A stretch of DNA of 64,000 bases from Rhizophlyctis rosea (lineage: Eukaryota; Chytridiomycota; Chytridiomycetes; Rhizophlyctidales; Rhizophlyctidaceae). Of this stretch, positions 20,201 through 47,836 are shown one piece after another. The notes below the pieces were generated by a model. It saw only the letters and a list, made by a program, of their open reading frames with translations, ran no database searches and was not told where the DNA came from. The translations under genes and the position numbers were made by a program. The stretch spans positions 1 through 64,000 of the forward strand of contig JADGJC010000032.1 in the NCBI GenBank assembly GCA_027596075.1. Reading direction: 5' to 3'. Within the stretch, counting starts at the first letter, position 1, and each line of letters starts with the position of its first letter.

Positions 20201-23200
20201 AATCCGCCCCCTCATCTCCTCAACAGCCCCCTGACTCCGTTTCAAATCCTCCTCCCTCTCACCAATTTCCCTCTCCCTCCTGCCAATCTCACCCTCCAAC
20301 TCCACAACCCTCCCCTCCAACCTCCTCCTCTCCTCCTCCCCACGACCCCCCTCCTCCTTCAACCTCTCACAATCCCTCTCAAAACTCTCAACAGCCGCAC
20401 CCAAAGCCGCAATCTCCCTCGCAGCATCATCATACTCCTCCGTCTTCTTCGCCAACTCCCCTTCCTTCATCTCAACCTCCTTCCGAAGCTCTTCACACCG
20501 TCGGGACTTATCCTCACTCTCACCGCGGAGTTCCTCCACTCGCTTTTCGAGAGTCTGTGCCCGTTCATGCGCATGCGCGATCTCCCCTTCGTACCTTTCT
20601 ACGGTCGCACGGAATTGTTCAATGTCTGCAGTGCGTTGACCCACTTCACCGCGTAACCGCTCACATTCCGCTTCCGCTTTTTCAACATCCTGCACCAACA
20701 CCTGAATTCTCCCTTCCGCTTCCCTCAACGCATCTCCCATTCTCACTTGTTCGCTCTCAGCATTCTCCTTCACGAGTTTCATCTCCCCCTTCAACTCCCC
20801 CAAAGACAATTGAAGCGCACCGATATCCTCCCTTGTCCTCTCCTCAGCCCTCACAGCTTCCTCATACCGCGCTTCAATATCTTCGCTCTTCACCCTCTCT
20901 TCCTCCCTCAACTCCCTCTCACTCTCCAACTCCCCAGCCCGCTTCTCAGACTCCATCCTGACTTCCTCAAGCAGCCTCCCAAGCTCCTTCTTCTCAACTT
21001 CCCGCTCGTCACCCTCCTTCCGCAAAGCAACGATCTGCTCTTCTACTTCCCTGACCCTCTCCTCGGCCGCCCGCGCCTGCTCAGAAGCAGCATCCCTAGC
21101 CGCCTCAAGAGCCGCCACGTCCTCCCGTCTGGCCAACTCGCCCGTAACGAGGTCCTCCTCGATCTTCATCACCCGAGTTGCAAGGACTTGACGATCATTC
21201 CGAGCTTCAACCAGCGCATTCTCCACCGCCTGCTTTTCCGTCTCGACGGTCATGAAGCGCGATTGAAGTTCCTCGAGATTGTGTTGCTCGGTGGAAAGGT
21301 CATCCTGCAAGCGCCGCTTCTCCTCCTCAGCACTCTTCAACGCTTCCTCAAGCCTTCCAATTTCGCTTCGAGCAAGATTGAGCGCCTCCTCCTTCCCCAC
21401 GCCAACCTCATCCGCCCCCTCCCTAACTCCTACAATATCCCTCTTCAGCCCCTCAATCTCCTCCTCCAAACACCTAATCCTCTCCTCCCGTTCACCCAAA
21501 ACCTTCCTCACACCCCCAATCTCCACCTCCCCTTCCCTAACCCGCTCCTCCGCACCCTTCTTCTCCTCCTTAACCTCCTGCAACCTCTCCTCCATAACCC
21601 TCAAATCCTCCTCCAAAGAATCCAAATCCTCCCTCGTCCTCCTCAACACATCCTCAACCTCCCTCTTGGCATCCTCAACCCCCGCAAGCCTCCTAACCAA
21701 ATCCTCACTCCGAATCTCCTCGTTCGCAAGCTTATCAACCATCCCCTCATACCTCTTCCCAAACTCCTCAAGCTTCTCCTTCGCCTCCCGCGCTTCTGCA
21801 GAGAGCGAAGACATCTCCTGGATAGCACTTTCGTGCCGCTCCGTCATTTCGGACAGTTTGCTTTCGAGATCGGTTTTGGTGAGGTTGAGTTGTTCTAGTT
21901 CTTCGGTGCGAGCTCGGAGCGCAAGTTCCAGCTCCCGTCCAGTCCTGTCGTGCTGTTCAGACAAGGAGGCCGCTGTCTCTTTTGCGGCAGCAAGAGCAGA
22001 CCGCAGGGAGTCGCATTCGGTCGAAACTTCGCTCAACCGGCTCTTCGTCCCCTCCAAGTCGCCTTGCATCACCAACATGCTATCGGCAAGCTGCGACTTC
22101 TCGCTTTCCCATGCATTTTTCTCGTCCATCAGCACTTGGATTTTCCCTTGAGCTTCCTTCAACATATCTTGCGCTCTTTCCTTCGCCTCACCTGCCTCAT
22201 CCCGCTGGACTCGCAGACCTTCAATAATCTCCCTCATCTTGGTCGTCCCAGCGTCCGAATCGCTACAATGCGCTTCGAGCTCTTCTCTGGCACGATCAGC
22301 TTCCCGCCTAACTTTGTCCAGCGAATCCCTCAACTGCCGAATATCCTCTGCCGATCTGACTTCTGCGGCCGAAGCGATCTCCAGCTTCTGTTGCAGCTCT
22401 GCAACCGACATTCCCAACTTGTGCTTCTCGGTCACCAATGCTGCCATCGTTTCCCTGGCGTCGTCAAGTTCTGGAGATTTAACGTTCAACTGCTGAACAA
22501 GACTTTCAGTCTCCTGATGCTTCGCCTCGACCACTCCCTCCAGCTCCGCAACCTTCCTTGTGAGCGTGTCGTTTTTCCCACCCATGATTTCCAAATCCGC
22601 CTCACAACTAGCCAACTCCTCCTCAGACCGCCCACACTTCATGACCGCCTCATCCCTCACCCTCCCCGCATCCGTCAATTTCCGTTCCAAAGACCTCACC
22701 CTCTCCTCCAAACCTTCACACCGCTCAATAGCTTCATCCAACGCCTTGCGCGCCTTCTCCGCCTCACCAAATTGCTCAGAAAGAATGCTCTCACGCTCCT
22801 CCCGCGAACTCCTCTGAGCCTCCTCAAACCTCTGCACCTGAACCTTCAACTCCTCAACCAGTCCCTGTGCTCCCTCCAACTCCCTCCTCAACCCATCCCT
22901 CTCCTCCTGCACCCGTTCAACCACATTCCTCGCCTCAGCAACCTCCTCCCCCAACTCCACAACCTGAACCACCAACTGCTCCTTGGCTTCAATCGTAATA
23001 TCCAACTTCCTCTCCGCATCCTCCTTAGCATGCTCCAAATCCTCCACCCTCATCTGCGCATCCTCAATCGTCCTCACCATCCCATCTTGTTCCTCCTGCT
23101 GCTGCTGCCTCGTCACCTCAAGCTCCTGCCGAAGAGACGCGATCGTTTCCGTTCCAGCTCGCACATCGGCTTCCAAATCCTCGATCCGGGATTCGAAATT

Positions 23201-25752
23201 TGCCCGATCAACGGCATGCTGGTCGATGGTCGCCAACAGCTGAGAATTCTGCTTGCTCAGACCTTGCAAATCTGTTGTCGCTTTCTCAACGTCCATTTTC
23301 GCGGTCTCGGCGATAGCGGTCAGATGTTGCAATTCATCCTCACGGCTCGAAAGCTGCCTGCCCGTTTCTGTAAGTCTTGCCTCCACCTCGTCAAGGCTAT
23401 TCCTCAATGTTGCAACCTCGTTCACCAACTCCTCAACCCGTACTGCATGTTCCTTCCCCAAATCCGCAACTTTCCTCTGCAGCTCTACCACAAGCACATC
23501 GGCCTCTCCCTGCACCTTGCTGGCGTCCCGGACCTGTCGTTCTGCAACCTCAACCCTCCCCTCATACTCCACCCGAACCTTCTCAACAGCCTCTTCCGCC
23601 CTCTCCGCCCTCCCCTGCGCTTCCTCCATCTCCAACTGTAAGTTCATGATGATCCCGTCCCTCTCAGCAACGGTCTCATGAAGCTTCTGTTCAGCCGTCT
23701 TCGCTTGCTCCACCTCGAACTGCAACCTTTCTACCATTGCCTCATTTTGCCGAGCAGCTTCAATAGCTTTAGCAAGATCATCCTTCAAGGCCCCGATATC
23801 TTGCCTCGCCTTCACAAGATCCTTCTCCCCTTCGGCAACTTGTGCCCGCAGCCGCTCCATAGCCTGCTCCAACTCTCGCTTGTCGTCCGTGAGCCGCTCA
23901 ACAACAGCAGGATCAATCGACTCCGCTTCCTTCAAAGCAGCCTCCCGAGCTCTTGACGCCTCCAGCAACCCTTCCAGCTTCGTTTTCATTCCTTCCAGAT
24001 CCCGATTCTGCCGCTGTAAGGTCGATACCGACTGCTCATACCGAGCGCCCTCTTCTTTCAATTCTTGTCGGAGCTTAGCTTCTCTTCCCTCTGCTTCGCT
24101 GCTCTTCTCTTTAAGCGTCTCAACAGCATGCTTGCACCTTTCCAGCTCTTCCCTCGTTCGTTTGACTTCCGCCACTCGGTTGTTGAGGTCGGTCTGCGTC
24201 ATGTCGAGTCTCGACGCCACCCCACGCAACTCATCAGCATGCTGTTTCTTGAGCTGCTCCATCTCCTTCTTCTGATGTAAGTTGATCTCTTCCAAGCTCT
24301 TGACCGCTTGCTTCTTCTCCTCCCCGGCGTCGCGCAGCTTGCTGGTCATGTCCCCGACGATACGCTCGGATTGCTTGATGGAGGCCATTTTCTCGTTCTC
24401 GAGCTTGACGATGGTGTTTTCGAGATTGGCCACCTTGCGCTTGGAAGCTTCAACTTCAGCCTCCAATTGCCTATTTTGAGCAAGGAGGGCGGAGTTGTCA
24501 TCGGAAATGGCGTCTGCCTGGCGGGATGTAGTGTGGGAGAGACTGCGACGATGTGCGGCGTTGGTGCCGCTTTGATCTTGCTGTGCGTTGTGCGATGTGC
24601 TTGATTGCTGTGTATTGCGTTCTTTCTGAAGCTGCAATAGCCAGTTATTAAGATGCAGGCAATATTTTGAAAAGTATATTGCACCTCATACCTCTGTTTT
24701 CAGACGTTCGTTTTCTTGTTGCAAGCGACGCAGTTCGGAAGAATCCCATGATGATAGCTCCGTCTATGCAATGCGTAAGTTAATAATCTATGATTACTTG
24801 ATAATGGATGCATGATCATAAATTACCTTGTGACTTGCAGCTGCCATCTTTGCATCCGCAACTTGCTTGCCATCTGCCCTGCTCCGTTCATCATGAAGCC
24901 GACCATTGTCCTGTTGTACCTTCTCATGTGCTTGCGTGAGCCGCTCAAAATCTGCGCATCCAAGAGTCAGTGCTTTTCCTATCCAGAAGTGGAAAGGTAC
25001 GGTAGGTAGCGTACCTGTTTCGAGTTTTCTTGACTTGAGCTTTTCTCCTTGGAGCTCCTTTTTGACATTGTTCAATTGGAGGCTGATGTTGTCCATTTTC
25101 AGCTCCTTTTGCTGTAATGTCTGTTCGAACAATCGCGAGTAAATTAGTTGGCTGCTTGCAACCGCATCGCGGTCATGGTTCACACTTACATCCTTTGCTT
25201 GAGCTAATTGCCGTTCCAAACTTGTTACTCGCTCGGTTTCGGTTATCAGCTACAGAAACAAAATGAGAACGTCAAACATAAAGCACGGTGCGTGAGCGAC
25301 GCCATTCATATCGATTAGCGTACCTTCCGTTGATTTGAGTCGGCATCACGCTTTTGGTCCGCCAGTTGCTGCTTTATTTTCGTAAGGTTCGTTTCGTTCG
25401 AGTCCAATTTGAGCTCTACAGGGCATACCAATGTTTATAAGCGGTTGGCCAAAGCGTGGAACAAAGTATGATACCAAATATGAAACCACCAACACATACC
25501 TAACCGCCGAATCTCCTTCCTCAAAGCCTCATTCTCCTCCTCCGCCGACTTCTTCTTAGCCGTTTCCCCAACACCAGACCCACCCCTCGCCGTATCCATT
25601 CCCCCAACTTTCGCACTACCCCCAAAGACGCCGCCCACCCCGCTCATTCCCCCCGTCCCGCCATCACGATTCGTACTTGTGGGTATCCGTGTATTCCGAT
25701 TGCCGGTGTTGCTTGGTTTGTCGCCGCCGGCGCCGCCGTGGAACCAGGACAT
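14222..25752 (-). CDS. Giant coiled-coil protein, about 3,668 residues
   Basis: CDS complement(join(14222..16024,16078..16251,16310..24631,24692..24763,24827..24951,25015..25120,25190..25249,25324..25415,25500..25752)); every junction keeps phase and one exon is 8,322 nt. The N-terminus (MSWFHGGAGG then Gly/Ser/Thr-rich, about 70 residues) is followed by more than 3,000 residues of E/K/R/L/Q-rich heptads with virtually no proline. The last about 200 residues are basic, Ser/Pro-rich and disordered, with repeated SPxR/K-type sites (SPTR, SPVRK twice) and two RRxT sites (RRIT, RRMT). No motor, GRIP, calponin-homology or zinc domain is visible. Giant coiled coils of this kind serve as Golgi tethers, spindle-pole, kinetochore or nuclear-basket scaffolds. 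The MSW start recalls some golgins, while the CDK/Aurora-like tail sites fit a mitotic or nuclear scaffold. Family not assignable from sequence alone. Confidence 0.85.
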
Positions 25753-31306: not shown

Positions 31307-32778
31307 TCACACTATCCCCTCCTCACCCACTTCAATTTTCACCATCGGCCGATGAAACAAACGCGTCGTGCCCGGCGCCCCCGTCCTCCGTCCCACCCCA
31401 TCAACCGGGTACTCATTAATAGCAAAGCAATATCCCGTCATCACATCATTCTCATCTACCGTATGATGTCGCACCTTCCTAGTCTTCGGATCCACCACAA
31501 TAAGCTCAACCCATGACCACGATAGGTCGTCATCCTCGCTATTATACAGCTTCTTGAAAACCATCCGCTCCTCAAAGAAATTCAAGTTGTCGACGTCTAC
31601 GGGCAAGAAGGAAGAAAGATCCAGGATCTGAATAAGGTCTGCATTGAAGTCGAAGATTGAAAATCGTAGTCTGGCGTGCAAAAAGATGTTGAATCTGGTT
31701 ATTTTCAGATGCTGGCCAATTGGCGAGATGTCCGGCGGGATGGGGCGCGAAGCGACGATATGTTGATCTTCCAGACGGATGAGGGTAAGGAGATATACGT
31801 CGGTTGCTTCATCGCGAGATATATGTGCTAAGATTGTACCATTGAAGTCGAATGTGATGAACTGCATCGCGCGATGGGTGAAACGAGAAGAAGGGTTGAC
31901 CAATGATACGATGTGGAAATAGAGACCATCCGGACGACTTTCAGAAAGGTGAGCACGCGATTGGCAGATGCGTACGACGTCAATATCGCGCTGGTAGCAC
32001 TCCAAATCCATGATCATCACGAGGTCGCCGCTAGTCCAATCTTCGAACCTAAGTGACCTATGTCGACCGTCCTTCATTGTACGGGCCACAATTGACGTCC
32101 TTTCGTATTCCCCGGAAGATAAATCGGCATACTTGCGTAGACTACCGGAAGACTCCGAGAAGACCGTGTCATGCAAGCCGCAACCTTTGCCTCTGCTGCT
32201 CAACAAGCTGTACATGACTTGTCCATCTGGCCGCACCCCGTTTGCGTAGCCGTAACCATCAACAGGACGGGAATCGGCCCAAATCAGGTCCCTCACAACC
32301 CCACCACCCGTCCTGGTCAAAGTCTCCCCAACAATGAGTACCTTCACGTCTTCCTTCCCACCGCGCCGAGGTGTCCAACGTCGGTTCCAAGCCCACCACA
32401 GAGTCGCGACATCCCGCCAAGTTTCATGTCCCACAAGCTCAGGCAAACAGCCCGCCGGATATGCCTCAAGCAGCTTTGGCTTCCAGATCTGCATAGACAG
32501 CAATGCGAAGTGAGAAAGGTGATTTACGTCCGACTTTGGCGAAACAGCAACTCTTTTCGCACAAAAAGCATTGTGCCAAAACACGTGGCCCAAGTAAACA
32601 AAGCGTCTCCCCCGCTCATACAAATGCAGAGCGGTTTACACACCTGAACATGATTAACCCTAGACAACGTACACCATTGCTTGCACACACGTTCACAAAT
32701 AAGCAGCTCGGGCACCGACACGTGCGGATGGGCGAAGAGCAGTGTGAGAATCTCGGGAGAAGTTAGAACGGAGGCCAT
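31307..32778 (-). CDS. F-box protein A (paralogue of the gene at 38.3-39.7 kb)
   Basis: CDS complement(join(31307..32488,32644..32778)), 438 residues. The ATG at 32778 opens an F-box-like N-terminus: SPEILTLLFAHPHVSVPELL then VCKQWCTL. The 155-nt intron follows codon 45 in phase 0. The remainder (IWKPKLLEAYP, then WRDVATLWWAW) has no named domain but shows repeated hydrophobic/beta-like segments such as FDFNGTILAHI and FSIFDFN. It ends with NEYPVDGVGRRTGAPGTTRL, a block strongly shared with paralogue B. F-box proteins recruit substrates to SKP1-cullin ligases; the substrate is unknown. The shared intron position and about collinear sequence show that A and B arose by duplication. They flank the HET-ankyrin gene on the same strand. 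Confidence 0.8.
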
Positions 32779-33584: not shown

Positions 33585-36500
33585 TCAAGGCTCAACCGCA
33601 CGCACGTCGCCGCCTCCCTCCCTAATTCCTCCCATCCCTATCCTGTTCTTCAGAATACCCACCACATCAGCATGTCCATTGCCCTCAGCCATCTGTAAAG
33701 CGGTGAAACCAAATGAATTCTTCAAAGATGCGTCAGCGCTATGATCCAGCAGGACAGTCACCACATCCCCCTTTCCGTTCCAAGCCGCCCAGTGGAGTGG
33801 AGTCTGACCATGTTGGTCTGCCAGGTTGATTTCAGCTCCCTGTGTTGCCAATGCATTGACGACCTTGGCGTGGCCTGCGGATACGGCAACATTTAGGGCG
33901 GAGTTTAGATTTTGAACCGAAGCGGACGTGGAGAGCACGTCAACCGTCGCCACGTGCCCTTTGAAAGCGGCAGCGCCTAGCGGAGTAACTCCTATGTTGT
34001 TCACCTTCTCCACATCGGCGCCATTTGCAACAAGGTATTCACAGACAGCGGTATGTCCGTTTAATGCTGCCAGAAACAATGGTGTGCCCGCCGTCGGGGC
34101 GTCAAGGTTTACATCAGCCCCTTTATCCACTAGTAATTGCACTTCCTCAAGCTGGCCGCAGCTGGCCGCATAGTGAAGGGCTGAGGAGTTTCCAACCGTT
34201 TGAACGCCACCCATTTCGGCTTGAGCATCTAAACATGACCGCACAATTGCGATGTACTCCTCCTCCTCCTCCTCCTCCTTTTCCTGCTTCCCATTCAACA
34301 ACAACGCCGTCTCCTCCTCTTGCAACACCCCGGCCTCCAACGAATGACGTACAACACTCGGTTTGTCAAACATGACTGCACATCTCAACCCGCAGCGCAA
34401 AGCAAACACCGGTGCATCCGCCCCCAATCTCATCAGATGCCGCTCAACATCCGCCTCGGTCGCACCCTCAGTAACTACAGACTCACTCCCAGAACACAAC
34501 TCCACCCTCACCAACTCCGTCTCAACCGCCGGAGATGCCAAAGCCCCACCCCCAACTCTAACAACCCCCCCATCGCCAACTCTAACCCCCGCAACACAAT
34601 GCTCCATCCCCACCTGCGCAACAAGCACCACATCCCCCTCCGTAGCAACATCCACAAACCAGTCCGCTTCATCCGTCACGCCAAATCTCCAAGGTAAACA
34701 TGCCGGATCCGCAAAATCAAAGCCGTATTTTTTCTTCGAGCCACGGGAGAGCATATCGGCCATTGTGGCTTGTTGCTCTGTGTTTGTGAGAGAGATTTCG
34801 TTGAGGCGGTATGGGAAGAGGGAGGGGATGTCGAAGGTGGGTGGACGACAGGGTCTGGGGGTTTGGTTCCATATTTGGAGGCATTCGATGTAATGAGTGA
34901 ACAACATTTGAAGGGCGATTTCTAAGTCTGGTGGGTAAGGTGCTCCAGCTTCCGTGACAGTTCCTTCCATGTGCTCTCGCCTCAACAATGCAAGGAGGAC
35001 TGCCTTCCAATCACAAAGAGAAAATAATAAACGCGATGGAATAGCGTCGACCTCCACGGGGGTTTCTTTGATTCGGGTGGGGACGGTGTTGAAATGGAGG
35101 GCTATGTGTTCGACTGTGGCGTCGGTTGCGTTATCGTAGGTCACAAGAAGAGTCAGATGGACGGCCATCAGCTTCTCCCCTATCCCAAGCGCGCCGTCCG
35201 CCTTAGCTGTTCCTTTCAACCGTTTCGCAAACCATTGATAACTCCTCCATGCCGCATATGGATAGACGCTTCCCTTCACGGGTAAAATCACCCCACTATA
35301 AAGCGCCCTATCCCCCGCGATAGAAACATCCCAACGATGATCGTCCCTCTCAACACCCATCATTCCTTCAAACGTAACATGCCTATACAAATCAGCCGTA
35401 TGGAACCCTTCCCACAGATTAGCAGGTTCAGGAATAACAATTGTTATTCCACCCCCCACCAAACATCCCCTTCCTCGGAACGCGTCCTGTTGCCACCGGA
35501 AAAAGCGCAGTCTCTATCAACAGATCAAACCATCGCTCCAAAAGCCCGTCGAGCGGAGATGCGTAATCAACCGGGAGGGGTTGACTAGGCCACAACCCTA
35601 TCATGGCGTACACAAGGTCATGAGACACAGAACAACTCCGAAGTTGATCCAACATGGCGAAAATGATGTTTCGCCAGGGTCTCTGTCCCAGTTCGACGTG
35701 GTGGATGGATTGGAGGATTCCCATTAGACGGAAGGCGTCTCTGACTACACTTTCCACGGATAACGCGGTGAGGGCGGAGTCGTTTAACGAGAGTGTGACG
35801 TCCATTTGATCCGATGTGCTAGTACTTCGGCGTGTTGTAATTGGTGGTTGCTGGTGGTTTAGTGTTTCGCGTATCCATGTTTGGGCGTGGTTGCGGAATT
35901 TGACGAATTGTGGCCAGGCGGAGTGGAGGTTTGATAGATGTTTTGCGGGATGGGTGTAGGATAACGCGGAAACTGTGATCAAAAGGTTTGGCATGGTGCC
36001 CTGGGTGTGACGCAAAGATAATGTTGTATGTTGTGATGCACTCTCCGCGTAAAAGTCATGGATACGTGGAAAGGCCGCCTCCTGAAACGTCCATACTCTC
36101 TTCATCCAGTTCATGTCCGAAATAGCAACCCGTTCCAAAGCCTTGACCGTCTTCATATCCAGAACCTCCGCTTCACAACTTTCGTTAAAAACATCAAACC
36201 AGCCGTCAAAGATACCCCCATCCCGCTGATCAAGAAGAACAACACATCGCCGCGCAGCCTTGTGCACCCGTCCCATATTCTTGACAGCCTCAACTTTATC
36301 GTCGTCGCTGGACTGATCGATGCAGAGCACGTCGCACCAGAACCATCCGCCGTCGTCCGCTGCGATTTCGAGAATGTCGGCGAATTTGGAAGAGGATGAG
36401 ATGGGGACGGCCCAAGGGAGGCCGATTTGGAGGGGTGGAGTTGGGTAGCCCCAGACGTGGGAGATGGCTGTAAAGGTTTCTTTGATTAGTTCGTCGTATG

Positions 36501-36720
36501 GGAGACCGGTGAATGTGACGGAATAAGTTAGGTCACAGGGGAAGTCTTGGACCGTTGGAGGGGGGGGAGTGGAGCAGGCCAGGAATTCGCAGATTTGCCT
36601 AAGTCCCACCAAAATATGGTCGGAAATTTTGGTGCAAATTCCTCCTCTTGTACAGTCCACGAAGCCCCCTGTGACCTCAGACGACACCCCCCGGTCGACC
36701 CGAAACAGTCTGCCGACCAT
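33585..36720 (-). CDS. HET-domain and ankyrin-repeat protein with one frame break
   Basis: ATG at 36720. The 3,136-nt span becomes one 1,044-residue frame if a single base is removed from the G6 run (plus-strand C6, 35452-35457). All three HET blocks are visible. These are FTAISHVWG (residues 83-91), then WFWCDVLCIDQSSDDDKVEA with NMGRVHKAARRCVVLL (127-162), then MKRVWTFQEAAF (206-217). A poorly conserved middle contains a Glu8 tract encoded by GAG repeats near 34255-34280. The C-terminus has about six ankyrin repeats (ALHYAASCGQLEEVQLL, ADVNLDAP, TPLFLAALNGHTAV, TPLHWAAWNGKGDVV, TALQMAEGNGHADVV). HET domains trigger heterokaryon incompatibility and cell death in ascomycetes, usually downstream of NLR-like sensors; ankyrin arrays act as binding platforms. 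No NACHT or NB-ARC is present. The break may be real inactivation, programmed shift or assembly error. No introns are apparent, unlike its neighbours. Confidence 0.82.
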
Positions 36721-38264
36721 TGCTTTTCTGACGTCGGGAATGGGCGGTGTGGAGTGTTTGGATTAGGTATTGCTATTTGATGGAGCCAAAGGAAGCGGCG
36801 AAGCTACAGCGCTGTTTTGACAAAACTTAAGAACAAAAACCGTTTTGTCAGTCAAATGCCCATCAAGTGCAGCACAAAGGTTTGGACAAGGGGGTTGGTT
36901 ATAAGATCATCACAAACTAGTCTGGTTAGCGCCCAGCTCCTTACCCAGGAGTTGTTTACTATTCACAGGCAGACTGGCGTTTTCATCAATGTATTTGTCA
37001 GTGATGTTGGAAGAGGTGACCGGCGAATTTATACTGAAATAGTTCAAGTATCAGTACACTTCACGACCACCTGTATGGTTACCTTGGGGGCTTCGACTAA
37101 AACAAGACGAATTTGTGCGCCGGTCAAAGGCAAGAAAGGGGACGAGGCGAGAGGGAAGGAACAACTCAGGAACTGACGGGGCTTGGATACAGGACTCCAG
37201 GGGGGGTAACACGGTGGCAAAAGGATGGGCACAAGCGCAGGGGCAGGAGGTGGCTCGGTGAACCCGAAGAAAGAAGGAGGTGAGAACGGAAACGGAGATG
37301 GGAAGCCGAAGGTGTGGACACATTATGGCGTTGGACCACACTTCACCAGTTGTGGAAACGGAGGTGACCGGAGCCACCGGGTGGGAGGGATAGCCGAGCC
37401 CGTCACCCAAGCCATTTACGTCTGAAGTAGATGCAGACTTGTGTTCGTGTGTTGAGAGAGTGTCGTTGGGGTGGAAGGAAATGGGCAGGAAGTCGGACGT
37501 TCGAAAGAAAGTGTCTGGCATCGTTGGCATAGGATTCTTGGTGTACGCTTAAAACATGGGATGGAAGGTCAATGGTCCGCAGCGGACTTTCATTTGCTCC
37601 AGTGTGCTGTTGAATACGGCACCATCTCTCGATAGGGATCTGGAGTATCTGCTGTTGCGCAAATGTTGGGACATACAGTGACTGATGTGGAACGAAGATT
37701 GTCAAGTGGGAGTTTTGGCAATATCGGAATAGGATGTAATTTCCAGCGCCAACATTGTTATAATTATAATGCTTGCGGAGGCGGATGGGGAAAAAGTGGG
37801 GGAGTGGCGAAAAGAGGGCAGCACACCTAGCAGTAAAAAGAGGATAGGTCACGGCAAAGGAAACCTGCAAATGGGATCTAAGCCATTCAATCGGTAATAC
37901 AACAATCATAACTAATGTTTGAAAAATGATGAGTGTGGTGTGAGATCTCGATCACAGCGCCTACTGTAGAATTTGCAATGCTTCACCTGCTTGCTTGTCA
38001 TGGCAGAGGCCCGAGGATTTGTTGACGGTAACACCACAGATGGGGTAAGATGCAAGGAGATTTCCATCCTACATCCATCCTACCACAGCAACTGCCCACT
38101 CCAAACTGATATGACTTTACAAAAGCTTTGAAATTTGCAAGATCGGCGACTAACCCGCCAAACGAGCCACGCCGGTAAGAATGAACGAACTGCGTATCCC
38201 GCCAAGACATGATGCAGTTGCCAAATTGCCCTCCCTATCCCATCGCACCAACAACTACCCATAC
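36721..38264. other. Intergenic, 1.5 kb, no gene supported
   Basis: Upstream region of the HET-ankyrin gene and downstream region of F-box gene B. Frames here (for example 37403-37909, minus) lack motifs and have AT-rich, hydrophobic-random composition, so I do not call them. The end of F-box gene B might extend slightly into this stretch through a gtgagt donor at its last codon. Confidence 0.4.
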
Positions 38265-39705
38265 TCACCCCCAACTCCATCCACCCATGGACCGCCAACA
38301 CAAACGCACCGCACCCAGTGCCCCAGTCCTCCTCCCGTCCCCATCAACGGGATACTCATTCATACCAAACCAATACCCCCCACTACTCTCCATCACATAC
38401 CCCCTCGCCTCCGTCCTTTTAGGATCAACCACAATAACTTCATTGAACTCCTTCCCCTTTTCCAATCCCAACGTCCCTACTGGTTCATCATACTTAACCA
38501 CATCCCTCCCGATCACCAACCAATCATCATACCATCCCCTCACCTCCGCATGTTCAGGCATCCACGACAAGTCCAGTTTATGAAGGAAGTTGCCCCTCAA
38601 GTCAAACACTTCCGTACACCGAGTCGTCTCATCATGTAGACACACGTTGAGTCTTGTCATCCGCACGTCTGGAGGTAAAGAAAAGGAGATCGGATTGGAC
38701 GCAATGGTTTGTTGTCCTTTCAGGCGGAGGAGGGTAAGGTAATACGCAGGATTGCTGTCCATGACTTTAAGAGTAATGTGCGCAAAGGTGGTGCCGTTGA
38801 AATCCCATCGTAGAAGTTGCCTCGAGGAAAAAGAGAAATGGAAGGACGGGTCATATGGTGAGATGATGTGATATGTGGGGCCGTGTTCCATAAGCACCAC
38901 GTATGATTGGCGGACAAGAAATACTCTTGTTTTATCAGGAAGGTGCCTAACATCTTTACTGGTCATGATGATGTCGCCGGTATCCCAATTTTGGAAGATG
39001 TGTGTGCCGTCGGGCGTCGTGCGGGCAAGGATGGTCGTTTGTTCGTGACGAGAATACAAGATGTCCGTGTATTGATGCAGAATGGTTCCGGAGAATACTG
39101 TGTCAAATTTGGACCCAACCAAGCTGTCGTGGTAGATGACTTGGCCATCTAGTCGCGCTCCATCGATTGTCAAGTCCCCTCTATGGAGATGCCCGGCCCA
39201 TGTCAAATCCCGAACCACCCCTTCACTCTTCCTGCTAAGTGTCTTGCCGTATTGAAGGTTCAATACATCTTGACTTCCGCCAATTTGAGGGGTGAAGGGT
39301 CGCCTCCACGCCCACCACTTGGTTGCGACATCACGCCAATTTTCACTGCCGATCAGCTGAGGCAGGCAGCCATCTCCAAACCCTTCAAGCAGCTTTGGCT
39401 TCCAAATCTGAGCGAGTAAAATATAGAGGTCAGGTTTGGTGCCCAAACACCAGCAGGCGTCCACCTTTAAAGGGTTCACCGCAACTTTGTCGAGAAAACA
39501 CGGGCCACACCATCTCTAGCTGGTGACCAGCAACATATGAACGCACCTGGCTATCATTAGTCCGCATCAACGTACACCACTGCTTGCACACCAGTTCAAA
39601 GTTGAGGAGGTCTGGTACAGTGACGTCAGGATGGGAGAAAATAAGCGTGAGAATGTCGGCGAAGTTTTCAAACGATGGCATTTTCTTCTCCAGTGTTATT
39701 GACAT
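38265..39705 (-). CDS. F-box protein B (paralogue of F-box protein A)
   Basis: CDS complement(join(38265..39407,39547..39705)), 433 residues. ATG at 39705. The F-box-like start is ADILTLIFSHPDVTVPDLL then VCKQWCTL. The intron sits at the same codon as in paralogue A, just before IWKPKLLE. Shared blocks: WRDVATKWWAW, GVVRDLTWAG, RLDGQVIY, WDFNGTTFAHI, IVVDPK and NEYPVDGDGRRTGALGAVRL. It stops a few residues after the last block. The final Gly codon overlaps a consensus donor (gtgagtatgg), so an additional 3' exon is possible. Role by family: SKP1-linked substrate receptor; substrate unknown. It sits between the HET-ankyrin gene and the USP7-like gene, all on the minus strand. Confidence 0.8.
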
Positions 39706-40185: not shown

Positions 40186-43100
40186 TTATGGTTCCACTAA
40201 CTCATATCGCAAGATTCCCTTCTCCCCATATGCAAAATCTTCAGACTTGATTCCAGTGACCTCTCCAATGCGAGACGTGGGCGATGGGACGGCCCCAACT
40301 TCTGTCGTCAAGCGAATTGTGGAGTCGGAAACTTTCAATTCCTCAGCCAGACGAATCATAGCCTGCAAAAGAAAGATATTTAGTATGCCGGTGGCATGCA
40401 GGGACGGTGGAGACAAAAAGGAGAAGGAACGACGAAGAGTCTTGATTCCTGAGCACATGAACGCACCCGTTTGCAGGTACTATGCACATTCAATGTCAAT
40501 GCATACTCAGCACCTGCTCGATTCGGCTGGAACACAATAGTTGCGACATTCAAAAGATCTCCGTAATGTTGCAACATCTCCTGTACAACATTGCTATTGA
40601 AAAGAATGAGAGATTTTGAGCTGATGGATGAACAAGACTACCATCTGCGTTGTTGTACGGCCACTCACGATGGACAGAACGTGATGATATCCCCATCCCC
40701 AATTTCAGCTTGTTGGAATGTCAAATTAGGTCGTATTTCCTCAATCAGATTGGGTTTCACCTCCTGGGGACGTGTCAGTCAGAGATTGCGATGATGAGTA
40801 CATTCAATAGGCTCGGCCCATTGCAAACAAACCGCAGCTGCAATAAAAAAAAAGGTTCATTTACCTCACAAAATGCCAGCTCCATGTCTTCCAGCCACTC
40901 CCACCGACGCTTGATGGCGTCCGGAAGCAACGACATATTCGAGGACCGAGCCACTTTGACAGTCCCGAAGAAGCTGATATCGACAGAGTTAACAGTGCGT
41001 CAATGCACCACAAGGCGACGGCAAGTTGGAAAAGACGTCACATAGGTTCAATGACGGACTGGCCGCCTTACCTCAATTGTTTAGAAGTCGCATCGTAGTA
41101 CTTGACAAACAGGGTTTGCAGCAACGATGTTGGTACATTAGTCGGATTTACAGTGATCTGATAATGTTTATGAGGTGAGAATATCGCATACCAAACATAT
41201 CAAGTGGCGGTGTCGCATTCGGGATGAGCAGAATACACAAACTCCGACGCGGACTTGATCCATAACATACCGAAGCGTCCAAATATTCAACATACAGTAT
41301 CGCAGGACTGTCCTTCCGGAAGAGGCTGTTGACACCTGTTGAATTTCATTTTCCGCATGTCTCAGCGAATGCGTACGCAACACGATCGTGAAGTAGTTGA
41401 TCATCACAAGATCAACATACCGACATCATCCGCGGGAATCAAATCAGGTCGCCAAGTCTTATTCTGCCGGTTCGCGATTGTCCAGACACGCACTTTGTCC
41501 ACTGTCGTGCCCAAACTACTGCAGATGGTTTGCTGGATCATGACGGGAAATAATGACATCAATTGAAGTAAATAAAAGAGATGTTTTTTTTGCAGAGCAC
41601 CTTGCAGGGGAAGCAAAAATACTCACTTTGGCTTTCCCGAACTTGTCAAAAATATCGAAATCGAATAACTTCAAATGAACGTTATTGCGGTTGAAATGGT
41701 CAACTCTACTGCGCTTCCCTTTGTCTCCCCAATGATCGAAAAGGTCGAAGCCTTGGTGTTTTGAGATGTCGTCGTTGGTCAGAACCTGTGCATATAGTCA
41801 TTTCAAATTCATTGGGAAATCTTGGACTATCTGGAGCAGATATGTTTCAAGTCTTCAAAGTTTACCTCCACCAACACCTTCGAAGCGTTCCGTTCCCATA
41901 CTTCCCTCGCAATCCGCATCTTTGCATCATCAGCGGCAATCCCTTCCCTAACATGCCTAGGTATATCCGCCTCCGTTATCGGCGCCATGACGTTGCTTAT
42001 ATCCGACTCTCTGATATACTGCAGCCCATAGGCAATAACAGCTCGGCCGGTACTGTCTGTAGATCCGTAAAAGCCTTCTACCGCTTCGCGCTCTAATGCC
42101 GGCGTCACGCGGTCATCATGGAACTTGAACCAGCGGTCCGAGTTGGCTGTGGGTGGGTGACTGAGATAAGGGCGGGTGTAGAGCATGTACTGATTATCGG
42201 TTCCATCCATCGTTCCCTGGAACCCTATCACGCTGAGCCGAAATTATCATATTAGTCGTAAGGCAGGAATCAATAACAGGTCAAGCAAGCCTGTCTCATA
42301 AACCCTTGAGTGCATCAACACAAGCGAGTCATACCTGTGGAGGATGTACTTCTGCCGTACACTCTTGTCAGCTTCAGCCGACATGAATCTATCAAGCTCA
42401 ATCGTCAGTGGATACTCAAACCTGTGACGTAACTTATGGAGATGACCGTCAATTGCTGCGTCATCACTCAAGGTAAATAAGCAATTTGTCCAACCTCCAC
42501 CATCCGGTCCTTCTCCACATCATATTGAAACCGCTGAAGCTGAATCTGCAACACCGGCGGCAATTTCTCGAAAATCCGGCCTTTCCTAGCATCCTGTGGG
42601 TCGGTGGATGCATTTCAAAAGGGAGAACAATGAGCCGTCCGGATTTCTCTGTCACCTTATACCTGCAACCCGTGAACCTGACACCAATACTGGTTCATTC
42701 CATCCAACAACTCAGTCGCCACATATTCTTCGAAAGATTGCATAAGGTTGCTGAAACCGTAAGTCCTCAAAGCGATGTCGTAAAACCTTTCGTCACGGGA
42801 CATCTTATGGTTATGTTTGATGCAGGTGATGTAGCTTGATTCGGTCCCCATGCAGAATTCAGTGGTTTTCTGTAAAGTAACATAATGGAAACCCGTCAAA
42901 ACATACGAGGTGGAACCATATGTCAAATTCTTTGATATGAACCCGAAACAGCGTACCTTGGATTTCTGCTCAAGATTGCCTTGCAAAACCCTCAAACATT
43001 CAAAAACATCATGCGGCATGTGCAGATCCAAACTGCTCCATCCAAATGCTTTCGTCAACTCCAACGGGTTGACGATGTCTTGGGAATGCTGCAGTCGGTA

Positions 43101-44733
43101 GAAAACACGCTGCAATGCGAGGGCAACATCTTTTTCTGGATCAGCCTTTTCGGTGGGGATTTGGAAGACAGCCTGCAACAGGTATTGGTTTGGGTGAGAC
43201 CAATAGCGAGTCACGTGCTGCTCTGAAATGCATGCAGTTGAATAATGACTCTTACCCTCCGTGCAATGTTCGTGCAGTACATCTGCTGTAGGATAATGTT
43301 CAAGTACCCAGTTGCTCCCAAATTCTTCAAACCGACGAAACCGGTCGCTTCTTTGGAGTCATATCTATGTAAGAAAAACCTTCAATATCATTTCTGGTTC
43401 GGAGGTGGAAAGTTCCGGCAATTCATCATGGTACCCAGCCCAATTATGCCACAGAACGCCAGTTGGATCCTCCACTTTTCGGATGATGCCGATGAGCGTC
43501 AAACTGCCATCAACAATGTAAGATCCTAATTGTGATAAGGTGATGAAGTGACCGAAACCCCAGTCCGTAGTTTCAGGCGTACAACGATAGTGTGCGTCTG
43601 TAAAATGATGAAAACAGAATCAGAGGAGAGATGCATGCCAAATGCACAATAAACAACAAGTCGGGATATTTGCTTGATCACCTTACGAACCCCCTACCTT
43701 TCGAAACGGACAAATCTATCTGACCAGTATGGGGCAACATTATGGCAAACCTGCAGCACTGATGCCACTTCTCTCCTTTCCTCTCCATGGCATCAACATT
43801 TTGGATATACACTGACAGGTTTTGTGTCTGACGGTTGCCACGAGGGTAAATGAGGAATTGCCTGTAAGTGTCAAGAACATTTTTTCCTGCTGTAAGATTG
43901 CACAACGATAGTCAATCACTAACCAGCGTGTTCCATGAGCTTCAAAAGTTGGACTGGTCACAGATGGTTGCGTAAAAGATGCCCAGTTCTTGATCCGCCA
44001 TTGCACCACATGTCGCGGACTCTCGTCCAATTTTGAATCAGCAGGAAGGACGTTAGGATAAGTATCCTCCGCAAGCTGCACGATTTCAGGTGTGGGTGAC
44101 GATGTGTGCGCGGGGCTCGTTGAAGACGGCGGATTGGATGGTATTGGAGTAGCGGGTGCGGCTGAAGGGAGTTGTGCTGACGACACTGTTTGCATTGGTG
44201 GCCTTGATGGCAGCAATGATGTTGGAGGGACAATTGCGGCTGTAACAGACGGAGTCACATCGGTTGAAATGGCTGGGGAGGACTGTACGCGCGTCAGTTT
44301 AATCAAGTCATGCAAACAATGATGTCAGCACTGCAATCCAGTAAAGCCCAACCTGATTTAGCTCAGGCTCAATCTCAGCAATTGAGGTTCCATTTTCACG
44401 CTCATCCTCCTTCTCCCCTTGCACCATTCCCCGCGACAAGGTCGCGCGGAAGCTGTCGGCGATAAGGTGTGCATCCTGTTCACTCAAATTGATGCGGGAG
44501 TTGTTGGCGGCAGCTAAACCCCCAGCTGCTCCGCCCGCTTCTGCCGTCGTTAGCGGCTGCGGCGTTCCTGCTCCTTCGCCCGTCAAAGTAACTACTTCTG
44601 TCGAAATGTCGTCGCGGCTCACGTTGTTTGTTTCGTTCAAAGCTGCTGATGAAGACGAGATGGGAGCTTGCTCGTGCTCCTTGGTCTTTGTGCCCTGCCC
44701 TCCCTTTTTGAAAATCTTCTTGAAGATGCCCAT
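40186..44733 (-). CDS. MATH-USP7/Ubp15-like protein lacking the catalytic triad (pseudo-deubiquitinase)
   Basis: Eighteen exons, all in phase, 1,030 residues: 44353-44733, 43924-44282, 43698-43861, 43435-43597, 43256-43364, 42957-43172, 42663-42869, 42495-42593, 42335-42432, 41866-42232, 41627-41785, 41421-41532, 41271-41335, 41072-41157, 40865-40973, 40669-40763, 40467-40593, 40186-40362. Order: low-complexity N-terminus; MATH domain (about 175-345, RHVVQWRIKNW, DWGFGHFITLSQL); USP fold (TGFVGLKNLGAT onward, LALQRVFYRLQHS, KAFGWSSLDLHMPHDV, LPPVLQIQLQRFQYD); and USP7-type ubiquitin-like C-terminal repeats (EVKPNLIEEI, GDGDIITF). Catalytic Cys is Gly375 (GGG codon 43307-43309), the HY-box His is Gln613, the FDDD Asp is His637, and the VEGTI loop is missing. 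Family members remove ubiquitin; this one should bind, not cleave. Gene structure argues against simple decay. Confidence 0.9.
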
Positions 44734-45343
44734 CTCTAGATCCGCTGCATGACGAAAGGAACGAGGAAAGGGGAGCTAGAGGAGGGAGTGCCTAGTGCAA
44801 GACGCCAAAGGTTTGAAGGTGATTGTGTTCACGGAAGGGGGTTTGTGTTACACCCTTTACCTCCACCCCTGCGACGCGAGGGTCCACAAAACCTTGCCAC
44901 TGCCAACTGGCGCAGCTTCAGGCCCTAAACATCCTCTGTTTGCTGGCTGTTAGGGGAGCATTGTAGGCGGCACAAATCCTACATATTGAACACACGCTGA
45001 TGTGATTTGGGTAAATGGTTGCTGAGGTCACAAGGATGTTGCAGCTGTGAGCTCAACCTGTCCATAAATGTGTGCAAATTCGAGATAGGCCAAGCTACTT
45101 GATGGCGTCTCAAAAATATCAAACTTATCAATGTGTCAAGGCTCTGTTTTCAAGGGCAGACGATCCCCCAGCTCCTTGTGTGGCTTGACTTGACTGATGT
45201 CTGCGATTCTCCTGCCTCGTCGATCAAGGCAGCTTTGCTAACAGTTTCCCTACTTTCGAATACTTTCAAAATCCTTTCATCCTCTTGAAATATTTTGAAT
45301 CGTGAAAATCGCTCAAATTCACCTCAAATCAACCCGTTACAAC
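44734..45343. other. Divergent intergenic region, 610 bp
   Basis: Lies between the 5' ends of the USP7-like gene (-) and F-box-like paralogue C (+). It is therefore a shared upstream region; no gene or clear motif. Confidence 0.45.
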
Positions 45344-46275
45344 ATGAGCTGCGCCTTGACCAACGGCAGAATCGTTTTCCTATTGAACTCGAAAGCTCAT
45401 TTAGGTGCAAGCACGAAACGGGTCCCGTCTCCATTCCTCTTTCTCCCCATTGAAATCTACCCAGATCTTCTACGCTACCTGTCTCTCATTGAGGTCAGCC
45501 GTCTCGTTGAATTACACCCTTGGCTTGAGCCTTCCCGTTGTCCCACCACCTACCGGCTCGTCAACGACTACCTGACCACCAGAAAACCTGTTGTTACCCT
45601 CTGGCGAGACGACTACTGCCCCTACGAGCTGCAATACGTTTCCACCCCACCCCCTCCACAGGTCCCAAACAAGCCCATACCAATAACCATATTCAGATTC
45701 GCACCCACCAAACAAACCCCCATTAAATTTCACGCGTTAATGGGCGGCGGCCCCAATTCCGAAATGGGCACCGAGGAAAACTGGTTCCTTCATTCCAGTT
45801 TGTGGACTGACGACGAGCCCGTTTGGGAACAAGAGGACTTCTGGAACCAAAGGATCGACCCAGTATTCTGGCCTAACGAGGCCATCATCCATGAGATACA
45901 TAATTTTATTCCTCCTCTAAAAACTGTCGGAGAATATCCCTCCATCAATGGTCACGCGTGGGTGGGGTCCGGGCTTCGAAGTATGTATATGCTAGTGACA
46001 ACAGAGATCCGGATGATGATGAGGAGCCCATGGACGGTGAGGACGACTGGCCGAAAACAGTTGAGGGGAAAATCACGCATGTAGATGTAAGCTTGTCATG
46101 GTTGGTGTCGCGGGTGGAGGAAGACGATAGTGGTCATGAGGGTAGCGAGAACAATGTCGGCGATAACGGCACTGAAGGGAATAGTGATGATGAGGGGACC
46201 GAAGGGGATAGCTACGATGAGGGTAGCGAGGGCGGCAGTGAAAATGAACAACCCAATAACGACTTCAGCGATTGA
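45344..46275 (+). CDS. F-box-like protein C, tandem paralogue with one frame break
   Basis: ATG at 45344, stop TGA at 46273-46275. The N-terminal LPIEIYPDLLRYLSLIEVSR segment resembles an F-box helix pair. Further blocks shared with the next gene: LEPSRCP, IFRFAPTK, NWFLHSSLWTDDEPVWE, HEIH, YPSINGHAWVG, DDWPKTVEGKIT, VSLSWLV, and an acidic Glu/Asp/Gly/Ser tail. The frame changes at the G4 run at 45964-45967. Adding one G keeps alignment with paralogue D straight through (AWVG to VRASKYVY, matching AVVGFRALKLVY), so the break is a single-base deletion or an assembly error. Without correction the protein ends early, about 35 residues beyond the break. Function unknown; possibly an SKP1-linked receptor (inference from the F-box-like start only). 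Confidence 0.65.
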
Positions 46276-46933
46276 TTAGTTGTAGTCTGGTCATGTACAT
46301 CGAGGAGTTCAGTTGTATCTCCGACAGTGTAGAACTTGAAACCTCTTGGTATTGGCAGAATATATCCTACATGATTGAAGAGCCTTTGCCGTCCCCTTAT
46401 TAGGGGATGTCAAGACGACAGTTCCTTATTCAATCAAAACAACCTGCACCGATGTGTTGTTGCGAATAGATAGCCACGCATCATAATGAAATTGCGACCT
46501 GCTCGTGACGATCTCGAAAGTTGCGTTCTATTTCATTCATGCTGGGTGCCTGGAATGGAGGTAGAGACTTCATTCGTGGCTTGGATTGACTGTATGTTTA
46601 TGGTGCATCACGGCCAATCCCATTTATCCCCATCTTGATGATCACCTCTTCAACCTCTTTCACGAACGTGTCAATCAATATTTGAGGAAATCATATACAG
46701 AGTGCAGGGGAAAGTCTATCAACGCCATATGTGTACATTAGTAGAGCTTACCCGAACGACAACTTTCCCTCTTGAAACTTCCAACATCTCCCGCCAGAAC
46801 AGAATCTTGCCAGATTGGATGGCGTACCACCACTTCGCAGCCACTCATTTTTACCCGAGCTCGCCTTTGACAACTAAAAGCAGAACAGCTACACAATTGA
46901 AACGCACAAACTTCTCAAGGAGCCAGCGCAAAG
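46276..46933. other. Intergenic between tandem paralogues
   Basis: No gene or repeat seen. It carries the upstream region of paralogue D. Confidence 0.4.
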
Positions 46934-47836
46934 ATGACAACTCGTGGTGCTCTATCTCCCTTTCCCCTCCTTCCTAAGCCCGTCTGTCCAACCCTACTCC
47001 GCTACCTTTCCCTCCTTGACATTGGCAACTTCGTCAAATTGCACCTGTGGCTCGAACCATCCCGCTGTCCCATCGTTCACAGAGCTGTCAATGCCTACCT
47101 TGACTTCTACAAACCCGTCATTACATTCTGGCGCGACGACGATTCAGCATATGGCAAAATCTACGACCTAGACTACTTCCCAAGGCCACCCTGCAAGCAC
47201 GTCACAAACGAATCCACAGCAAGGACCGTCTTCAGATTCGCGCCCACCAAAGAAGAACCTATCCAGTTCTCTGCATCCATGGGCGATGAGGATGGAGACG
47301 TGGAGGTCGAAACAAATTGGTTTCTCCATTTCATTCTGTGGGATACCGAACCTGTTTGGGAACTCGAAGATTTCATCGACAACCGAGACGGAATTACATA
47401 CTGGCATAATGAAACTATCTGGCATGAGATTCATCTCGAGTGTCCACAAATAAAAGAAGTCACAAGATACCCCTCAAATAATGGGGAAGCAGTTGTAGGG
47501 TTCCGTGCTTTGAAACTCGTATATAGTAAGGCTTGGGGTGCTGAGGAGGAAGATGAAGAGTGGGAGGCGGACGACGTTTACAATGATGATTGGCCTACAG
47601 CTGTCGACGGGGAAATCACTGGAGTCCTCGTCAGCTTATCATGGTTGGTCTCTGCAATGAAGCAGGGCAAATCAGTTTACAACGTCAAGGAGGGTAGTGA
47701 TAGTCTCGGTGGGCAAGATTCGGAGGAGGACGGAGTAGGCAGCAGCGACGATGAGGATAGCAAATGGGTTACTGGCGACGGCAATGACGAAGGCTTCACT
47801 GATGATTGGTACAGCGAAATCAACGAGGCCGATTGA
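46934..47836 (+). CDS. F-box-like protein D, tandem paralogue, intact
   Basis: Single exon of 300 residues from ATG 46934 to TGA. It is collinear with paralogue C: CPTLLRYLSLLDIGNFVKL, LEPSRCP, VITFWRDD, VFRFAPTKEEPIQF, TNWFLHFILWDTEPVWE, VSLSWLVSAMKQG, then a Ser/Asp/Glu-rich tail. The N-terminal leucine-rich helices resemble a short F-box but are weak. No known C-terminal domain. The central about 200 residues with alternating hydrophobic and charged residues may be a beta-rich recognition domain (inference). The acidic tail may be disordered. Together with gene C it gives a local tandem duplication next to the USP7-like gene. Confidence 0.7.
   Translation: MTTRGALSPFPLLPKPVCPTLLRYLSLLDIGNFVKLHLWLEPSRCPIVHRAVNAYLDFYKPVITFWRDDDSAYGKIYDLDYFPRPPCKHVTNESTARTVFRFAPTKEEPIQFSASMGDEDGDVEVETNWFLHFILWDTEPVWELEDFIDNRDGITYWHNETIWHEIHLECPQIKEVTRYPSNNGEAVVGFRALKLVYSKAWGAEEEDEEWEADDVYNDDWPTAVDGEITGVLVSLSWLVSAMKQGKSVYNVKEGSDSLGGQDSEEDGVGSSDDEDSKWVTGDGNDEGFTDDWYSEINEAD

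What the first reader, a model, noticed from the sequence alone, without database searches (positions are those of the whole stretch)
40186..44733. USP7/Ubp15 homologue with all three catalytic residues replaced but an intact 18-exon frame
Seen: the Cys-box reads NLGATG where active USPs have NLGATC (Gly codon GGG at 43307-43309); the His-box ends NQYMLY instead of GHYVVY (Gln at 42190-42192); the following Asp motif reads KFHDD instead of KFDDD (His at 42118-42120). The VEGTI-type loop is also absent. Yet MATH domain, USP fold, ubiquitin-like repeats and 18 splice junctions are all preserved. Known: USP7 needs Cys-His-Asp. Inference: a pseudo-deubiquitinase, perhaps a ubiquitin reader or a dominant-negative competitor of the true USP7.
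Basis: partly seen in the sequence, partly recalled or inferred. Interest (0 to 1): 0.87.

Follow-up and report, generated by a model that had tools for sequence, protein, structure and literature searches.

The report
Catalytically dead USP7 copy in chytrid
A soil fungus carries, besides its normal ubiquitin-removing enzyme USP7, a second intact copy that has lost all three residues needed to cut ubiquitin, and other fungi seem to have made such dead USP7 copies several times on their own.

Summary
The minus-strand gene at 40186-44733 splices into an open 1,030-aa USP7-type protein (18 exons). Its Cys, His and Asp positions are Gly375, Gln613 and His637, at exactly the stated codons. The window is Rhizophlyctis rosea: NCBI's HDV00_006590 is this gene under a model that drops half the MATH domain. 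The genome also holds an intact USP7 (HDV00_001353). Ten of 17 intron positions are shared with it, so this is a DNA-level duplicate, not a retrocopy. No stop lies in 812 core codons; random drift to 44% identity gives 24 on average, at least 14 in 100 runs. Among 211 USP7-like proteins from two searches, 15 lack the Cys; these need 8 changes on the tree, and one origin is rejected. Best reading: a constrained pseudo-deubiquitinase working through substrate binding, as decoy or scaffold. The dead active site is near certain; selection is indirect (no orthologue, no expression data); the role is inferred.

The parts
40186..44733 (-). whole gene: 18 exons, 17 introns, 1,030-aa USP7-type pseudo-deubiquitinase; NCBI HDV00_006590 of Rhizophlyctis rosea lacks residues 285-356 of it
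44704..44733 (-). N-terminal basic amphipathic start MGIFKKIFKK (residues 1-10), a possible membrane anchor (inference)
   Evidence: 11-residue windows starting at residues 3 and 4 rank 4th and 1st in the protein by hydrophobic moment (0.71, 0.72)
44422..44502 (-). N-terminal motif NNSRINLSEQDAHLIADSFRATLSRGM (residues 78-104), shared with one other place in the genome (C179); predicted helix at 85-103 of low to medium confidence
43494..44003 (-). MATH domain (residues 221-336, spliced), DWGF intact
43554..43565 (-). DWGF (D313-F316), the columns of human D164-F167
42082..43336 (-). USP/UCH domain PF00443 (residues 366-649, spliced), catalytic residues absent
43307..43309 (-). Gly375 in place of the catalytic Cys (human C223)
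42190..42222 (-). altered blocking loop 2 (residues 603-613), ending in Gln613 in place of the catalytic His (human H464) at 42190-42192
42118..42120 (-). His637 in place of the catalytic Asp (human D481)
40291..41493 (-). UBL1 to about UBL3 (PF12436, residues 788-996, spliced)
40689..40706 (-). UBL2 acidic pocket E918, D921, D923 (human E759, D762, D764), intact

Best explanation
The gene encodes a catalytically dead paralogue of USP7/Ubp15, a pseudo-deubiquitinase, kept under purifying selection in Rhizophlyctis rosea beside the active-type enzyme. Shown by sequence: triad gone, blocking loop 2 altered, UBL4-5 and activating tail gone, substrate-docking pockets kept, frame intact, intron-rich duplicate of a canonical USP7 gene. 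Inferred: it works by binding USP7 clients through MATH and UBL2 without removing their ubiquitin. It would thus act as a decoy that lets clients be degraded, or as a scaffold that holds them, possibly at a membrane because of its added basic N-terminal region.
For: Triad columns G/Q/H, where 196 of 211 USP7-like proteins have C/H/D. PF14533 and the tail absent with no significant remnant in the window; that module drives activity in human USP7 (PMC6335408 and PMC10919355, passages seen). DWGF 4 of 4 and UBL2 E/D/D 3 of 3 kept; E759, D762 and D764 are each needed for ICP0-peptide binding in human USP7, and D762 and D764 for GMPS (PMC4457826, passages). Conserved columns kept: MATH 15 of 19, USP 98 of 147, UBL1-3 13 of 26. 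No stop in 812 core codons, where random substitution to 75% amino-acid identity gives a mean of 10.8 stops (minimum 5 of 100 runs) and to 44% a mean of 24.1 (minimum 14); already at 90% only 3 of 200 runs had none. Predicted USP domain matches USP7-ubiquitin aldehyde (1nbf) at TM 0.88 by target length, rmsd 2.4 A. Intact USP7 in the same genome (P0006, C30). Dead paralogues recur elsewhere in fungi.
Against: No expression data, no orthologue and hence no dN/dS; the protein evolves fast (end branch 1.6-2.0 against a median of 0.11-0.12). UBL1-3 keeps only half of its conserved columns. NCBI's model lacks half of the MATH domain including DWGF; if that were the real transcript, the decoy reading would weaken. 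DWGF and the UBL2 residues are conserved in nearly all live relatives too, so their retention here is expected of any constrained copy. No binding was tested.
Confidence: 0.5

Rival explanations
1. Ubiquitin reader: the dead USP domain still grips ubiquitin and links ubiquitinated proteins to partners of the new N-terminal region.
For: Fold kept; W285, Y224, D295, E298, L406, R408, F409, Y411, Y465 and Y514 columns kept.
Against: Channel and switching-loop positions are kept only at about the domain average (12 of 17 against 98 of 147); H456F, D459T, K420E, Q297F and the Gly-to-Asn change before the former His alter the tunnel; UBL4-5, which raises ubiquitin affinity in human USP7 (PMC6335408, passages), is missing.
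Confidence: 0.2
2. Regulatory partner of the canonical USP7: it pairs with the active copy and tunes it or carries it to a place.
For: Both copies lie in one genome and share most of a domain plan; pseudo-DUBs are reported to act as allosteric activators or scaffold parts (PMC10919355, passages); human USP7 constructs show a monomer/dimer equilibrium (PMC6335408, figure legend seen).
Against: Nothing here shows an interaction; the tail that could act in trans is missing.
Confidence: 0.12
3. A young pseudogene or a gene in early decay.
For: Long branch; no orthologue among the listed hits; fragments of canonical-type USP7 copies lie on C363 (two in-frame stops) and C121 (a frameshift) of the same genome, so USP7 copies do decay here.
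Against: No stop in the core and all 17 introns with GT..AG ends at 38% identity to the paralogue. Free drift of 10% of residues leaves 3 of 200 simulated cores without a stop, 7% leaves 11 of 200, so little of the divergence can be unconstrained; a gene silenced very recently is not excluded.
Confidence: 0.1
4. Still an active protease through another residue, as claimed for USP52 and debated for USP39 (PMC10919355, passages).
For: Such cases are reported; other cysteines exist in the domain.
Against: All three triad residues, blocking loop 2 and the activation module are gone or altered together.
Confidence: 0.04
5. Sequencing, assembly or gene-model error.
For: Single assembly, no cDNA.
Against: GGG differs from either Cys codon at two bases; the surroundings are diverged too; 10 of 17 introns match the paralogue in place and phase against 0.26 expected.
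Confidence: 0.02

Closest known systems
USP7/HAUSP (human), Ubp15 (budding yeast), Ubp5 and Ubp15 (fission yeast), Ubp5 (Cryptococcus)
   Same: MATH + USP + UBL1-3 in that order; the best PDB hits by sequence and by fold are USP7; DWGF and UBL2 acidic pockets; 10 shared intron positions with the canonical gene of the same genome
   Different: no catalytic triad, no UBL4-5 or activating tail, altered blocking loop 2, about 220 residues before the MATH domain (about 46 in the canonical copy)
Pseudo-DUBs of the USP class (USP39/Sad1, USP52/PAN2)
   Same: USP fold without a standard triad
   Different: those are not USP7-type and have other domains; USP39/Sad1 acts in splicing (PMC10919355, passages); PAN2's role in mRNA decay and the domain details are recalled
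Other Cys-less USP7 paralogues found here (Rhizophagus, Mycena, Panaeolus, Pisolithus, Blyttiomyces)
   Same: USP7 plan with the Cys replaced by Gly, Ser or Ala, sometimes His by Gln or Arg or Asp by His
   Different: separate origins; 8 of these 14 keep PF14533 and all stay much closer to live relatives
Fission yeast Ubp5/Ubp15 pair
   Same: two USP7 homologues in one fungus, one of them at the Golgi through a partner (PMC2935449, passages)
   Different: that paper assays Ubp5 against a C222S inactive control, so it is treated as active; here one copy is dead

Membership tests
USP7/Ubp15 family (by descent) | MATH, USP and UBL (PF12436) domains in order | tested here: met
   MATH_2 3.1e-14, UCH 2e-35, USP7_ICP0_bdg 1.6e-35, all over the cut-offs
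USP7/Ubp15 family (by descent) | USP7_C2 (PF14533, UBL4-5) and C-terminal activation tail | tested here: not met
   absent, present in P0006 (1.5e-47); no significant remnant in the window
USP7/Ubp15 family (by descent) | shared gene structure with a canonical member | tested here: met
   10 of 17 introns at the same place and phase, 0.26 expected
Active ubiquitin-specific protease (MEROPS C19) | Cys-His-Asp/Asn triad | tested here: not met
   Gly375, Gln613, His637
Active ubiquitin-specific protease (MEROPS C19) | cleaves ubiquitin | not testable with these tools
   needs an assay
Pseudo-deubiquitinase (functional) | USP fold kept without catalytic residues | tested here: met
   TM 0.88 (by target length) to 1nbf, rmsd 2.4 A, on a predicted model
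Pseudo-deubiquitinase (functional) | retained under selection, not a pseudogene | tested here: inconclusive
   no stops against simulation, but no orthologue for dN/dS and no expression data

The most novel reading that the evidence does not exclude
Fungal USP7/Ubp15 is a repeated source of pseudo-deubiquitinases. Duplicates lose the catalytic Cys again and again (6 to 8 changes on the tree) while keeping the client-binding pockets, giving a class of natural USP7 decoys or scaffolds. The R. rosea gene is the most remodelled member found here, having shed the activation module and gained an N-terminal region with a motif shared with a membrane-protein-like tail.
Probability: 0.3. Interest if true: 0.7.

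Novelty: new variant of a known kind. Interest (0 to 1): 0.55.

Why it matters
USP7 is one of the best studied deubiquitinases and a drug target, and catalytically dead USP7 mutants are ordinary laboratory tools (general knowledge). A natural dead paralogue that sheds the triad and the activation module but keeps both known client pockets would separate docking from cleavage in evolution. If the repeated loss in fungi is real, it offers several natural replicates for asking why genomes keep dead deubiquitinases.

Tried and rejected
Retrocopy: rejected, introns shared. Assembly error of single codons: thought unlikely, see rivals. Single origin of all dead copies: rejected by the AU test (p 5.7e-42; the group was named after the tree had been seen, and the near-copy P0090 was left out of the 50-row set). 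Placing this gene: sister to the canonical copy of the same genome (p 0.34) and sister to Blyttiomyces P0014 (p 0.27) are both not rejected, so the age of the duplication is open. Special preservation of the ubiquitin channel: not found (12 of 17, near the domain average). dN/dS against the paralogue: dS saturated, not usable. N-terminal motif in the protein database: 107 candidates, none at E <= 1 (the search is insensitive for so short a query). N-myristoylation: residue 6 is Lys, which does not fit the PROSITE pattern as I recall it. Loss of PF14533 among dead copies: 7 of 15 dead against 4 of 196 live lack it in the precomputed Pfam lists (counted by eye; Fisher p 5.5e-7), but many of these are short or partial models. 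Without models under 900 aa it is 2 of 10 against 0 of 191 (p 0.002), so this is a lead only. Literature: the listings (10 to 25 papers each, often a small part of the papers found) showed no paper that names a USP7-type pseudo-DUB in fungi; the library is open-access only, so this is weak.
Full report
What is there. The minus-strand gene at 40186-44733 was rebuilt by hand from GT-AG junctions: 18 exons, 17 introns, 1,030 residues, ATG at 44733, TAA at 40188-40186, no stop inside. The only odd junction is the exon 8/9 acceptor (AAG), placed there because it restores the frame and the USP7 reading; its position equals an intron of the canonical gene. Pfam finds MATH_2, UCH and USP7_ICP0_bdg, all above cut-off. 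Of 82 PDB sequences matched, the 60 listed begin with USP7 (1.2e-100) and are all USP7 or other USP-family hydrolases.

Where it is from. The protein database returns HDV00_006590 of Rhizophlyctis rosea (P0001), which equals residues 1-284 joined to 357-1030 of this protein: the end of exon 3 and exon 4 are missing. Its contig length (216,011) equals that of the contig on which the window lies. The skipped stretch holds DWGF, is conserved in the other family members, and the introns that flank exon 4 are shared in place and phase with the canonical gene; I therefore take the 18-exon form as the main one, but an isoform is possible.

The intact copy. Searching the own genome (44.1 Mb, 634 contigs) finds the canonical USP7 on C30, NCBI HDV00_001353 (P0006), with Cys-His-Asp present. 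Its gene was rebuilt exactly, with 18 introns. Ten of this gene's 17 introns share position and phase with it, where random placement gives 0.26 on average and 3 at most in 2,000 draws. So the two arose by DNA duplication of an intron-rich gene. Identity over 827 aligned residues is 38% (USP 49%, MATH 34%, UBL 29%).

What was lost and kept. Lost: the triad; the Q297, H456, D459, K420 and M407 columns (human numbering; fungi have Lys at 407) and the Gly just before the catalytic His; the AEGAI loop; UBL4-5 and the C-terminal tail. Human USP7 needs UBL4-5 and the tail for full activity (PMC6335408, passages; PMC10919355, passages). Kept: DWGF of the MATH domain, E759/D762/D764 of UBL2, and W285, H294, D295, V296, E298, Y224, L406, R408, F409, Y411, Y465 and Y514. 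Mutation of any of E759, D762 or D764 abolishes ICP0-peptide binding in human USP7 (PMC4457826, passages). That DWGF forms the MATH peptide pocket is recalled; PMC13376213 (passages) gives the bound motif but not those residues. The channel residues come mainly from PMC6188144 (passages). Over columns at least 95% conserved among 111 live homologues, the gene keeps 15 of 19 in MATH, 98 of 147 in USP and 13 of 26 in UBL1-3, against 18, 144 and 26 for the canonical copy. The ubiquitin channel and switching loop (17 positions at least 94% conserved in 196 live homologues, 12 kept) are thus kept at about the domain average, not better; this speaks mildly against a ubiquitin-reader role.

Is it constrained? 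No orthologue was among the 120 listed best hits of 534, so dN/dS could not be measured, and against the paralogue dS is saturated. Indirect evidence: random substitution of its own core (812 codons) gives 10.8 stops on average by 75% amino-acid identity (minimum 5 of 100 runs) and 24.1 by 44% (minimum 14). At 95%, 93% and 90% identity, 15, 11 and 3 of 200 runs have no stop. The gene has none, so little of its divergence can have been free; very recent silencing is not excluded. As an internal contrast, fragments of canonical-type USP7 in the same genome on C363 and C121 (tblastn identities 40-82%) carry two in-frame stops and a frameshift respectively; a third on C526 has open exons, which is against the contrast. 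GC at third positions is 0.549 against 0.430 in its introns. The AlphaFold2 model of P0001 (44 sequences, mean pLDDT 73.1, pTM 0.57; in residues 281-600, 28 of 32 ten-residue blocks at 70 or more) matches 1nbf at TM 0.88 by target length and rmsd 2.4 A over 349 columns. The model used NCBI's shorter protein, so the MATH domain was not modelled whole.

Is it alone? No. Of the 120 listed best homologues, 9 lack the Cys-His-Asp set; with a second search seeded on Mycena galopus P0112 (120 listed of 3,901) the count is 15 of 211, the present gene included, and all 15 lack the Cys. The second search was seeded on a dead copy and both lists are capped, so this is no rate; a minority of the 211 are unnamed metagenome proteins. 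The other 14 are in Rhizophagus irregularis (4) and R. clarus (1), Mycena (6), Panaeolus papilionaceus (1), Pisolithus croceorrhizus (1) and Blyttiomyces helicus (1). In R. rosea, M. rebaudengoi, P. papilionaceus and P. croceorrhizus the set also holds a live copy of the same species. With the triad columns left out, 8 changes are needed on a quick tree of 211 rows and on a careful tree of 50 rows (14 dead; P0001 and P0090 left out); starred branches alone force 6; one clade for all dead rows is rejected at p 5.7e-42, the group having been named after the tree was seen. Some of these may be pseudogenes or partial models (four of the six Mycena models are 538-893 aa), and the Blyttiomyces case rests on one record.

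N-terminal region. About 220 residues precede the MATH domain (about 46 in the canonical copy). They begin MGIFKKIFKK, a short amphipathic basic stretch, and hold a motif NNSRINLSEQDAHLIADSFR with a predicted helix at 85-103 (block pLDDT 63-68 for residues 81-100). The motif was found at one more place in the genome, on C179, in a 486-residue frame that by eye looks like a single-pass membrane protein: Cys-containing part, Thr-rich stalk, hydrophobic span, then a cytoplasmic-looking part with the motif; no Pfam family there reached its cut-off. The database search for it gave nothing. In fission yeast the two USP7 homologues work in membrane traffic and polarity and one sits at the Golgi (PMC2935449, passages). 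Membrane placement of the present protein is therefore a guess and no more.

Mechanism. Steps shown: no catalytic residues, fold kept (predicted), client-pocket residues kept, activation module absent, frame kept. Steps inferred: translation, client binding, and the effect. Binding clients without removing ubiquitin would compete with the canonical enzyme (decoy) or hold them in a complex (scaffold). I give the dead active site above 0.95, functional retention about 0.85, and the decoy or scaffold role about 0.5.

Verdict. It is a new variant of a known kind: pseudo-DUBs of the USP class are known; USP7-type ones in fungi were not seen in the listings. The wider pattern of repeated loss is the more interesting part and is what should be tested next.

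Noticed in passing
own genome C363:16647-18174, C526:74009-74983, C121:7455-7960 (L073, L074, L075): Three non-overlapping fragments of canonical-type USP7 (MATH; UBL1-2; UBL4-5). C363 has two in-frame stops, C121 a frameshift, C526 open exons with introns.
   Followed up: partly
own genome C179:12795-13124 (L076): A frame that looks like a single-pass membrane protein carries the same motif of about 20 residues as the N-terminus of the pseudo-USP7 (73% identity in the aligned stretch).
   Followed up: partly
43365-43750: NCBI's model HDV00_006590 treats this stretch as one intron and so drops the second half of the MATH domain; homology argues for exons here.
   Followed up: yes
14001-24000: Strong negative GC skew (-0.34 to -0.55 per 2 kb), stronger than in any other 2-kb block of the window.
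   Followed up: no
31307-32635 and 38265-39515; 45299-46084 and 46901-47836: Two pairs of similar reading frames of unknown family near the gene, by eye; they look like local duplicates.
   Followed up: no
33585-36762: Reading frames that look like a HET-type and ankyrin-repeat protein (by eye and from memory).
   Followed up: no
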